Source: Marinobacter sp. (GTDB lineage: Bacteria; Pseudomonadota; Gammaproteobacteria; Pseudomonadales; Oleiphilaceae). Taken from it: a DNA stretch of 64,000 bases. Made by a program: the position numbers and the translations under genes. The first letter of the stretch is position 1. Each line of letters begins with the position of its first letter. Where the stretch lies: positions 24,768-88,767 of the forward strand of contig JACIZI010000012.1 of assembly GCA_014359475.1 (NCBI GenBank), in the 5' to 3' direction. The notes beneath the pieces are model-generated. The model was not told the DNA's origin. It did no database searches and saw only the letters and a list, made by a program, of their open reading frames with translations. This document shows, piece by piece, positions 60,550 through 64,000 of this stretch.

Positions 60550-60945
60550 TTAACCCCGGTCAGCGGATTCAACCTGCTTTGCAGCGGCTGATTCCTGAGC
60601 CTCAGGCGGCCTACCCGGCAATGGAGTTGAACCGGAAAACGGTGCAGCCACCGGACTGTCACCAATAATCACACTGCCGCTGCCCACCGTCACGCCGCCA
60701 CAGGCCACATCACCACCCGTGATTGCAGCCGGCATACCATTAATCATGACCGTGGAAGAGCCAGAAGCAATAACACGCGGATGCGGCGGATGGGAGGGTT
60801 TTGAATGCATCGCAAGCCGGTCACCCACCCTGGCCACGGGCTTGCCGTCTACCAGAACATTTGGCGAACCGGTGATGACTGGCGTGGGGGGATAGCCGTC
60901 GTGATCCATGCCCGGATCACCCAGCAGAACTATGGGTTTGCTCAT
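60550..60945 (-). CDS. PAAR domain protein (type VI secretion spike tip)
   Basis: 131 aa from the ATG at 60945 with AAGGAG 8 nt upstream; a longer frame to 61056 lacks support. PAAR core about 1-95: PIVLLGDPGMDHDGYPPTPV, GKPVARVGDRLAMH, HPPHPRVIASGSSTVMINGM, AITGGDVACGGVTVGSGSVI. The last 35 residues are Pro/Ala/Ser/Glu-rich. PAAR proteins cap the VgrG spike of T6SS and can carry effectors. No VgrG, T6SS or effector gene is nearby, so this is an orphan accessory gene. Start of the accessory region. Confidence 0.88.
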   Translation of the reverse strand: MSKPIVLLGDPGMDHDGYPPTPVITGSPNVLVDGKPVARVGDRLAMHSKPSHPPHPRVIASGSSTVMINGMPAAITGGDVACGGVTVGSGSVIIGDSPVAAPFSGSTPLPGRPPEAQESAAAKQVESADRG

Positions 60946-61147
60946 TCCGTGAACTCCTTCTTCCGTGATTAACGTAATCTCAAATACAGCTCTCACCAGC
61001 CCTCGATAGCATATACTGGTCTTTCGCACAGTGAAATGTCGTGGGTCACATAACAATTGCTCTTATTATTTTGATAAGGCAGCCTCGCCCCGCATGTGGA
61101 GGGAGGATGAAGCGTACAGCTCCCGGTGGCTGGCATTAAACGCCAGA

Positions 61148-61384
61148 TCATGCAGGCCCCGGGCGGCGGTACGAAACAACTGCCGAACCGTTATGCCGGC
61201 TCACGAGACTGTCCGCCAGGGTCAAAACCCACGAAGCAACATCCTCCCGTAAGTAATATGCACCGCAAGCATCACAAATATCTGCTGGTACATTTTTCAG
61301 TGAGACTGTTTTGCCGTTCCTGTGCAAAGTGACAGTCGTCGAATCAGGGTGTACTTCACCCAAACGACAGTTGGTGCATTTCAT
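61148..61384 (-). CDS. YgiT/MqsA-type zinc-finger antitoxin, orphan
   Basis: 78 aa from the ATG at 61384, with GGAGG 9 nt upstream; an ATG three codons earlier (61393) has the ribosome site touching it. Zinc ligands C3, C6, C37 and C40 (MKCTNC and ICDACGAYYL) and the VTLHRNGKTVSLKNVPADI strand pattern match YgiT-type zinc-finger proteins, usually the antitoxin of DUF4258 or MqsR toxins. It lacks the C-terminal HTH of MqsA. No toxin gene is present on either side. Its 5' end is 46 bp from the end of the CRISPR array, on the array's inferred transcription strand. Confidence 0.82.
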   Translation of the reverse strand: MKCTNCRLGEVHPDSTTVTLHRNGKTVSLKNVPADICDACGAYYLREDVASWVLTLADSLVSRHNGSAVVSYRRPGPA

Positions 61385-61429
61385 CCGGTACATCCTCCTC
61401 TCGACCCTGGCTTATCATCGTATAGTACC

Positions 61430-61457
61430 AATACACACGGGTGCATGTGGGGAAGAC
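61430..61457 (-). repeat. Degenerate terminal (trailer) CRISPR repeat
   Basis: The 15 nt GCATGTGGGGAAGAC match the repeat exactly; the other 13 nt (AATACACACGGGT) are diverged. In the minus orientation the 3' half is lost, as is usual for the oldest, leader-distal repeat. The diverged half and the next 40 bp would also hold the antitoxin promoter, if it has its own (TACTAT near 61420). Confidence 0.8.
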
Positions 61458-63870
61458 ACTGCCTGTCTTGCTGATAGCTATGATAAAGCGGAAACACCCC
61501 CACGCATGTGGGGAAGACGGGTCAATCCCAGCCGCCTCACATTCTTCTTTAGAAACACCCCCACGCATGTGGGGAAGACGCCAGGGTGTCTGTCTGGTCG
61601 AACACGGTCGAGGAAACACCCCCACGCATGTGGGGAAGACGCGTCCTGGCTGCCGTAGTCCCTGGGCGGGTTGGAAACACCCCCACGCATGTGGGGAAGA
61701 CTCCCGTCGACATGGACGAAGACGACAAAAAAGGGGAAACACCCCCACGCATGTGGGGAAGACGCCGACCGTATGGCATGATGGATGCGTCTGTGAGAAA
61801 CACCCCCACGCATGTGGGGAAGACCACACCACATGGGACAGAACGATGCCGGCACGGGAAACACCCCCACGCATGTGGGGAAGACGCACGTGGCCACGAC
61901 GTGTGGACATGCGACCTGGAAACACCCCCACGCATGTGGGGAAGACCTCGCTGAGGACACGTTCGGTGTCAACTTCGGAGAAACACCCCCACGCATGTGG
62001 GGAAGACGTCTTTGTGGTAACCGCAAACTCCGCGCTAGTGGAAACACCCCCACGCATGTGGGGAAGACTAGACAATCCGGTTCCAGGGATCCCAGGCAGC
62101 GGAAACACCCCCACGCATGTGGGGAAGACGTGATGGAAATGGCGTCAAGCGTGAAGGTGTTAGAAACACCCCCACGCATGTGGGGAAGACAGACGCCACA
62201 TATGCGCAGAGGTCACTTCAGAGGAAACACCCCCACGCATGTGGGGAAGACGAAGATGAGGGCATACAGCTTTACAATGACGTAGAAACACCCCCACGCA
62301 TGTGGGGAAGACTCCTGACAACATCAACAGGCTGTCCATCCGATGGAAACACCCCCACGCATGTGGGGAAGACTTCGTGCTGTCGATCATGTCAGACACG
62401 ATGTCAGAAACACCCCCACGCATGTGGGGAAGACAGCTTGCGCGGAGATTCGCCGGCTCCCGCCCTGGAAACACCCCCACGCATGTGGGGAAGACAAGCC
62501 GCAAACCGCCAATAACGACATCATCTGGGAAACACCCCCACGCATGTGGGGAAGACGTCGATCTGCTCTGCGAATTCCCGGCGCAGGAAGAAACACCCCC
62601 ACGCATGTGGGGAAGACTCCACCAGGGCTTCAAGCACGTTGGTGCCCTTGGAAACACCCCCACGCATGTGGGGAAGACTTCCCAAGCACCTTGCGCAGCG
62701 TTTCTTCGTAGGAAACACCCCCACGCATGTGGGGAAGACCGGAGCTGGCATCAGCTGCTTCGTGGGACCGTGGAAACACCCCCACGCATGTGGGGAAGAC
62801 GCATCAGCATCGAATATGGCCAGCGTCCGGCCAGAAACACCCCCACGCATGTGGGGAAGACTGAGTGCGGCTATCTCGCGTTTTTGGTGGCCGAGAAACA
62901 CCCCCACGCATGTGGGGAAGACTATTCCGCACCTTTGGTAACTGCGTTGTACGTGGAAACACCCCCACGCATGTGGGGAAGACTGCCAGTGTGCACAGGA
63001 TCGGCGAAGCGGGTGAGAAACACCCCCACGCATGTGGGGAAGACCCTCCTGAAGCCGTGGGACGATCCGACACCGCAGAAACACCCCCACGCATGTGGGG
63101 AAGACGAGCCCCTGCTCGCAGCGGTGGCGGCTCCATGGGAAACACCCCCACGCATGTGGGGAAGACACCACGCACCCGCACCCGGGCACCGGTCACAAGG
63201 AAACACCCCCACGCATGTGGGGAAGACGCTGCGCACCAATCCGCGGCGGGTGGTGCCCTGGAAACACCCCCACGCATGTGGGGAAGACAGATAGCGATCA
63301 CCGCCCTTAATCGGCGGCATAGAAACACCCCCACGCATGTGGGGAAGACCAGCTTGCCCAGAGACACGCCAGGTTTGCGCTGGAAACACCCCCACGCATG
63401 TGGGGAAGACTTGGCCCATAGCCTCAACAAACGCATCACAGTAGAAACACCCCCACGCATGTGGGGAAGACTTATACGCTGTCTGCGATACCACGGCCCT
63501 GGTGGAAACACCCCCACGCATGTGGGGAAGACCTCAACACAGATCAAAAAGGGCTCGCACTACTGGAAACACCCCCACGCATGTGGGGAAGACCGCTTCG
63601 TACCCTTCACGGTCGCACACGATATAGAAACACCCCCACGCATGTGGGGAAGACTCACGCTGACGCTTGTCAGGTCATGTGCCTGCGGAAACACCCCCAC
63701 GCATGTGGGGAAGACATAATAATCAGAACGTGAGCCACCTAAGCCATGGAAACACCCCCACGCATGTGGGGAAGACCCGGCCATGGTGTGCCTCCAGTTA
63801 TCAGGATCGGAAACACCCCCACGCATGTGGGGAAGACTGACACACAATCCATCTCTGGTGGATCGGTTGA

Positions 63871-63898
63871 GAAACACCCCCATTTGCCGGGAAGCTAA
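63871..63898 (-). repeat. Broken leader-proximal CRISPR repeat
   Basis: The first 12 nt on the plus strand (GAAACACCCCCA) match the repeat, still one exact 61-bp period from its neighbour; the remaining 16 nt do not match. In the inferred orientation this is the newest repeat, which should be perfect in an active array. The breakpoint is near 63883. Confidence 0.75.
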
Positions 63899-64000
63899 CC
63901 TTAACGCCAACCTTGGTCTCCATGCCCATCGCATTCAGCATAACTGCCGTAATCCTCATCAACGAATTCCCCGACCTGGAGGCCGACCGCCTGACCGCAA
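63883..64000 (+). pseudogene. Fragment resembling the interior of a UbiA/MenA-type prenyltransferase
   Basis: The frame beginning at the broken repeat is open to the window edge; a stop (TGA) ends the same frame at 63868-63870. It reads KLTLTPTLVSMPIAFSITAV followed by ILINEFPDLEADRLTA. The INEFPDLEAD segment matches the second Asp-rich motif (NExxDxxxD) of UbiA-superfamily enzymes, normally deep inside a roughly 300-aa protein, so about 200 N-terminal residues are missing. It looks 5'-truncated by the join to the array. The ATG at 63922 could not give a normal protein. The downstream part is outside the window, so the fragment call is provisional. Confidence 0.45.

What the first reader, a model, noticed from the sequence alone, without database searches (positions are those of the whole stretch)
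61430..63898. Every spacer ends in a purine: a PAM-derived 29th repeat base that sets array polarity
Reading all 40 spacers on the plus strand, the base just before each repeat is G (25) or A (15), never C or T. The base just after each repeat is unbiased. A one-sided mark like this is expected when the first base of each acquired spacer comes from the PAM, as the final G of the E. coli type I-E repeat does. It implies minus-strand transcription, a 29-nt repeat, 32-nt spacers, an 8-nt handle after the 6-bp hairpin, and a PAM whose last base is C or T rather than the G of AAG.
Basis: partly seen in the sequence, partly recalled or inferred. Interest (0 to 1): 0.72.

Follow-up and report, generated by a model that had tools for sequence, protein, structure and literature searches.

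The report
CRISPR spacers starting with PAM's last base
A Marinobacter bacterium's CRISPR memory stores, with nearly every captured piece of virus DNA, one extra base of the recognition mark that lay beside it in the virus; the same was already shown in the cholera bacterium, and here it looks like the rule for a widespread branch of this CRISPR type.

Summary
In the window array (minus strand; 28-nt repeat, 39 exact copies), 40 of 40 spacers begin with a pyrimidine (25 C, 15 T), about 2e-13 by chance. The genome, a Marinobacter, carries a complete type I-E cas operon on another contig, with a second array that fixes the polarity.

Ten Marinobacter spacers have good protospacers; in six the best match has AA before the marked base, and in eight of nine decidable cases the marked base equals base 29 of that spacer's own repeat junction. 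One is a rare G exception whose exact protospacer has AAG. So base 29 comes from the protospacer.

It is not new in kind: Bourgeois et al. 2020 (PMC7677007) reported the 5' pyrimidine, its protospacer origin and PAM 5'-RTT (= AAY) for Vibrio cholerae I-E, same repeat family. Added here: 174 of 180 Marinobacter spacers and 978 of 999 spacers at 29 other loci obey the rule, whereas three other Marinobacter genomes with an E. coli-like I-E have G in 65 of 67. A weak bias at the next base is a possible new detail. The array's right edge is probably a chimeric contig end.

The parts
61430..63898 (-). CRISPR array, type I-E repeat family GTCTTCCCCACNNNCGTGGGGGTGTTTC; transcription inferred on the minus strand
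   Evidence: 39 exact repeats at 61-nt spacing, one at 62; same repeat next to the genome's I-E cas operon on contig C9
61491..63837 (-). 39 exact 28-nt repeats (first 63810-63837, last 61491-61518 in transcription order)
61430..61457 (-). degenerate terminal (trailer-end) repeat, 3' half lost
   Evidence: the arrays of G093, G049 and G070 also end in degenerate repeats
63871..63882 (-). last 12 nt of a repeat (TGGGGGTGTTTC) where the contig breaks off into unrelated sequence
63870..63870 (-). base 29 (T) of the spacer next to the broken repeat; the other 39 base-29 positions are the plus-strand base just before each exact repeat, e.g. 63809, 63748 ... 61490
63289..63321 (-). spacer a09 (T), matches the portal gene of Marinobacter phage AS1 and relatives; flank AA with C or T
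62618..62650 (-). spacer a20 (C), protospacer 31 of 32, flank AAC
62557..62589 (-). spacer a21 (T), protospacer 30 of 32 with ATT; other copies AAT, AGT
62496..62528 (-). spacer a22 (C), protospacers 29 of 32 with AGC
62435..62467 (-). spacer a23 (C), exact protospacer with AAC in G075 and in an IMG/VR contig
63883..64000 (.). 118-bp contig-end stretch, weakly UbiA-like; 63886-64000 has no match in 123 other Marinobacter genomes: probable chimeric contig end

Best explanation
[quoted passage not shown] Cas1-Cas2 captures 33-bp pieces beside an AAY motif (5'-RTT on the other strand), cuts inside the motif and keeps its last base as the first base of the new spacer; only 28 bp of the repeat are copied. 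That base is therefore C or T in nearly every spacer, marks the leader-to-trailer direction (minus strand here), and becomes the last base of the 8-nt crRNA handle. Shown here: the bias, the polarity, the mostly AAY flanks and the base-by-base match. Inferred from E. coli and V. cholerae work: the cutting step, the handle and interference.
For: 40 of 40 pyrimidines. Complete I-E operon and an adjacent array with the identical repeat. Ten Marinobacter spacers have protospacers with at least 27 of 32 matches outside base 29: the two bases before base 29 are AA in the best match of six (for b3 two of its three equally good copies), AG in two, AT in one, AC in one. Base 29 agrees in eight, disagrees in one, and for a09 equally good copies carry C (three) or T (one). 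The G-exception spacer of G093 has an exact protospacer with AAG. 174 of 180 Marinobacter and 978 of 999 other spacers have Y. Contrast: E. coli-like I-E arrays in three other Marinobacter genomes have G in 65 of 67. V. cholerae with the same repeat family: PAM RTT tested by conjugation (PMC7677007).
Against: Spacer G049_37 disagrees at base 29 and has an ACA flank; a22 and G093_17 have AG, a21's best copy AT; for a09 more of the best copies carry C than the spacer's T. Most protospacers are inexact (only a23 and G093_29 are exact), so drift is assumed. The b3 matches counted lie in or look like chromosomal dusA. Outside Marinobacter, in DNA fetched mainly for Marinobacter targets, only two spacers (both Pseudomonas thermotolerans) reached the same quality: one AAC and agreeing, one GAG and disagreeing. 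No acquisition, crRNA or interference was measured in Marinobacter.
Confidence: 0.94

Rival explanations
1. Base 29 is an ordinary but variable repeat base, duplicated with the repeat, and C/T reflects drift between two repeat variants.
For: Only two letters dominate; in E. coli the equivalent G was first read as part of the repeat (PMC10011333 passage).
Against: C and T alternate along arrays whose other 28 bases hardly vary; base 29 follows each spacer's own protospacer in 8 of 9 decidable cases, including a G.
Confidence: 0.02
2. The pyrimidine is selected afterwards, because only pyrimidine-initial crRNAs are processed or used, and does not record the PAM used at capture.
For: In V. cholerae the 5' base alters interference strength (PMC7677007).
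Against: In V. cholerae a 5' C targeted less well than T, and in two cases less well than A, yet C is common in arrays; the base tracks the protospacer flank. Selection on interference may still add to the bias.
Confidence: 0.04

Closest known systems
Vibrio cholerae O395-type I-E system (Bourgeois, Lazinski and Camilli 2020, PMC7677007; read: abstract, results, discussion)
   Same: Repeat GTCTTCCCCACGCAGGTGGGGGTGTTTC fits the same consensus but for one loop base; 33-nt spacers; conserved 5' pyrimidine; protospacer purine captured; PAM RTT = AAY.
   Different: Other host; there interference was tested. Here only sequence evidence, and the rule is followed over many genera.
Escherichia coli K-12 I-E (review PMC10011333, passages seen)
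   Same: Last repeat base comes from the PAM; 28 + 1 + 32 geometry; same Cas set.
   Different: PAM AAG, so the base is G; cas6e lies after cas5 there (passage), but between cas11 and cas7 here.
Klebsiella I-E arrays (PMC8847753, one table passage seen)
   Same: Lists GTCTTCCCCACATGCGTGGGGGTGTTTC, identical to the window repeat, as a terminal repeat.
   Different: The word PAM does not occur in the text searched; Vink 2021 gives AAN for a Klebsiella cluster.
PAM-repeat catalogue of Vink et al. 2021 (PMC8482600, passages seen)
   Same: Matches between PAM -1 and repeat end noted for I-E; lists AAC, AAT, AAN, AAG and other PAMs.
   Different: The match is tied there to AAG; an AAY group with a variable base 29 is not described in the passages seen.
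AAY motifs of Gardnerella and Lactobacillus casei I-E (table in PMC4246573, passages seen)
   Same: Computational AAY PAM in I-E.
   Different: Actinobacteria and Firmicutes; the repeat end is not discussed in the passages seen.

Membership tests
CRISPR-Cas type I-E | cas8e, cas11e, cas7e, cas5e, cas6e, cas3, cas1e, cas2e | tested here: met
   The best PADLOC match of each of the eight proteins is an I-E model; genes on contig C9, not in the window
CRISPR-Cas type I-E | 28/29-nt hairpin repeat at 61-nt spacing | tested here: met
V. cholerae-type (AAY) subgroup of I-E | repeat GTCTTCCCCACNNN-GTGGGGGTGTTTC and 5' pyrimidine | tested here: met
   V. cholerae repeat as printed
V. cholerae-type (AAY) subgroup of I-E | base 29 equals the protospacer's flanking base | tested here: met
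   8 of 9 decidable spacers agree, one tie
V. cholerae-type (AAY) subgroup of I-E | AA before the pyrimidine in the target | tested here: inconclusive
   AA in the best match of 6 of 10 spacers; A as first PAM base in 10 of 10; both exact protospacers have AA
V. cholerae-type (AAY) subgroup of I-E | interference depends on the AAY motif | not testable with these tools
   needs a plasmid or phage assay
E. coli-type (AAG) I-E | G at position 29 | tested here: not met
   1 G in this genome's 47 spacers; contrast 65 of 67 in the arrays of G062, G071, G042
crRNA with 8-nt 5' handle | Cas6e cut after the hairpin | not tested
   Cas6e gene and hairpin present; no small-RNA data

The most novel reading that the evidence does not exclude
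Type I-E contains two lineages that keep different last PAM bases (G after AA, or C/T after AA). Both occur in one genus, in different genomes. In the AAY lineage capture also leans on a fourth base (AAY followed by A, more weakly G), and spacers outside the rule record the odd PAM that was used, so base 29 of arrays is a readable log of the PAM of each capture.
Probability: 0.5. Interest if true: 0.45.

Novelty: new member of a known kind. Interest (0 to 1): 0.3.

Why it matters
It gives a free strand and boundary mark for arrays of a large I-E branch, lets the last PAM base be read from arrays alone, and shows without experiment that the final base comes from the target rather than the repeat. 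It also warns against assuming AAG for proteobacterial I-E systems. The core result was already published for V. cholerae, which limits the surprise.

Tried and rejected
Phage and plasmid searches with whole arrays: the window array gave one strong phage hit (Marinobacter phage AS1); plasmid hits had low identity over large parts of the array, mostly without annotated genes, and were taken for other CRISPR arrays with similar repeats without checking each; the C9, G049, G070 and Shewanella arrays gave no usable phage hit; the G093 array gave P2-like portal genes and a Vibrio phage group, of which three records were fetched. Protospacer candidates with 24-26 of 32 matches (among them a17, a19, a24, a26 and weak copies of a20 and a21) were left out of the counts. 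Spacer b8 was dropped as contig-end foreign sequence, and G049 'spacer' 62 because no repeat follows it; both were in the first count of 182 and are absent from the 180. In the automatic array listing one L254 array came out in the wrong register (purines at 'base 29') and L245 gave a second, unrelated 3-spacer repeat; one search recounted with the repeat-family pattern. Cas1 and Cas8e were compared with solved structures to look for PAM-reading residues, but the two literature searches for those residues, whose names I recalled, found no paper, so no residue claim is made. Five proteins left of the array had no match near the arrays of 13 relatives, so it stays open whether the window array and the C9 array are one array split by an assembly gap. 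A literature search for Marinobacter, type I-E, CRISPR and PAM gave one unrelated paper.

Full report
What is there. The window's last 2.5 kb hold a CRISPR array on the minus strand with repeat GTCTTCCCCACATGCGTGGGGGTGTTTC: 39 exact copies, degenerate or broken at both ends. All 40 spacers begin with a pyrimidine (C 25, T 15), the finding's G 25 and A 15 on the plus strand. With the array's own composition the chance is about 2e-13. The other side of the repeat is unbiased.

Whose it is. The genome (G000, 85 contigs) is given as of one genus with G049 and G093, whose contigs have the lengths of contigs of Marinobacter sp. SS21 and M. zhejiangensis. The cas genes are not in the window: contig C9 carries a WYL regulator, cas3, cas8e, cas11, cas6e, cas7, cas5, cas1 and cas2; the best PADLOC match of each cas protein is an I-E model. 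Then follow 47 bp and an array with the same repeat. This array reads away from cas2, which fixes the polarity: repeats end ...GTTTC followed by the marked base. In the window that is the minus strand. The trailer-end repeat at the left is degenerate, as in three relatives.

Is the base from the PAM? I searched 124 genomes of the genus (own included) with the arrays of G000 (two), G049, G093 and G070, the phage collection, and fetched IMG/VR contigs related to targeted genes, then compared the spacers with the fetched DNA. The genome search scores only a few candidates per genome (in one search two of about fifteen), so it can miss matches. Ten Marinobacter spacers have at least one match of 27 or more of 32 bases outside base 29. 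Best matches, as the two bases before, then base 29 of protospacer/spacer: a20 AA-C/C, a21 AT-T/T (AA-T and AG-T in other copies), a22 AG-C/C, a23 AA-C/C (exact), b3 AA-T/T (two copies; a third equally good copy AG-T), G093_17 AG-T/T, G093_28 AA-C/C, G093_29 AA-G/G (exact), a09 AA with C in three and T in one of the equally good copies (spacer T), G049_37 AC-A/C. Base 29 thus agrees in eight of nine decidable spacers; AA stands before it in six of ten; the first PAM base is A in ten of ten. The most telling case is G093_29, one of the rare spacers starting with G: its exact protospacer has AAG. More distant copies of that portal gene (25-30 of 32) carry various flanks, many CG-C.

How general. 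In four Marinobacter genomes 174 of 180 spacers start with a pyrimidine (C 93, T 81, G 4, A 2). A Cas1 search of species genomes gave 43 loci; two are the Marinobacter above, 12 showed no array in the fetched DNA with my detector, and 29 had arrays: 978 of 999 spacers start with a pyrimidine. The record titles name Gammaproteobacteria, a Neisseriaceae bacterium, Aquaspirillum, Insolitispirillum and Desulfobacterota-type MAGs. These loci were chosen by Cas1 similarity and counted with the repeat-family pattern, so they describe this branch, not all of I-E. As a contrast, three other genomes of the genus (G062, G071, G042) carry a distant I-E system (Cas1 33-35% identical); there base 29 is G in 65 of 67 spacers. 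Their PAM was not tested here; AAG is assumed from the repeat type.

A further detail. Over 1,167 distinct spacers of this branch the next base is also biased, weakly: A 349, G 326, C 239, T 219 among the 33-nt spacers. An excess of A and, less, of G remains against the composition after AAC and AAT inside spacers (p=2e-8 and 6e-5); against the plain composition after T only A is in excess. In the window A is 19 of 39, but the C9 array (1 of 8) and G093 (8 of 34) show no A excess. Positions 31 and 57 also deviate in the pooled set (p=5e-4 and 2e-7), so part of this may be composition. I did not search the literature for this point.

What is known. Bourgeois et al. 2020 (PMC7677007; abstract, results and discussion read) found 99.7% of 303 matched V. 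cholerae spacers to start with a pyrimidine, the complementary purine in the protospacer, and PAM 5'-RTT, tested by conjugation; the repeat is of the same family. In E. coli the last repeat base comes from the AAG PAM (PMC10011333 passages). AAY had been noted in silico for Gardnerella and L. casei (PMC4246573 passages), and Klebsiella arrays include the identical repeat (PMC8847753 passage). A search for AAY, 'type I-E' and 'protospacer adjacent motif' together found no paper, one for AAY, CRISPR and PAM six (two opened in passages), and none for Marinobacter I-E PAMs was relevant; the library lacks most subscription journals.

Caveats. The array's right edge is probably not a biological end: after 12 nt of a repeat the contig runs into 118 bp of unrelated, weakly UbiA-like sequence; contig C9 ends likewise in weakly aconitase-like sequence (E 0.05 and 0.08, below the Pfam cut-offs). 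Neither has a match at E 1e-5 in the other 123 genomes or elsewhere in this one. Both look like chimeric contig ends at an assembly gap, so the two arrays may be one. Handle length, transcription and interference are inferred. The statement '29-nt repeat, 32-nt spacer' is better written 28 + 33.

Verdict. Observation confirmed, interpretation supported, already established for a close relative of the system; new, as far as searched, are the host, the breadth of the rule, the within-genus contrast and the weak preference at the next base.

Noticed in passing
window 63883-64000; L032 14369-14494: Both contig ends that cut the arrays run into unrelated sequence (weak UbiA and aconitase matches) without a match in the other 123 genomes of the genus: probable chimeric contig ends.
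   Followed up: partly
L032 14064-14096 (spacer b3 of the C9 array); L071 21612; L267 2421: Spacer b3 matches the start of a dusA-like gene in several Marinobacter genomes and a similar stretch upstream of the integrase gene of phage AS1 (25 of 32), so it may aim at a phage attachment site; the host's own copy keeps an AAT flank but differs at 9 of 33 bases. The name dusA is recalled, no family search was run.
   Followed up: partly
L074 8562-10542: In G070 cas1 is split by an IS1595-family transposase gene, so that array is probably frozen; it still shows 38 of 38 pyrimidines.
   Followed up: partly
L080 8484-8511 (G004): A single perfect repeat of this family, followed by C, stands alone within the 20 kb fetched, in a genome where no relative of this Cas7 was found: a possible relic.
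   Followed up: partly
window 61148-61393 and 60550-61056, minus strand: Beside the array's trailer end lie a small ORF with a sub-threshold MqsA-antitoxin match and a PAAR-motif protein gene.
   Followed up: no
repeats of L219-L260: Between species the repeats differ mainly at the loop bases 12-14; in L222, L254 and L255 one stem pair changes on both sides (C-G to T-A), keeping the hairpin.
   Followed up: no
L108 (G062) 1500 and 2299: Spacers of two Marinobacter species (G049_37, G093_28) match neighbouring genes in G062, a genome that itself carries the other, G-type I-E system.
   Followed up: no
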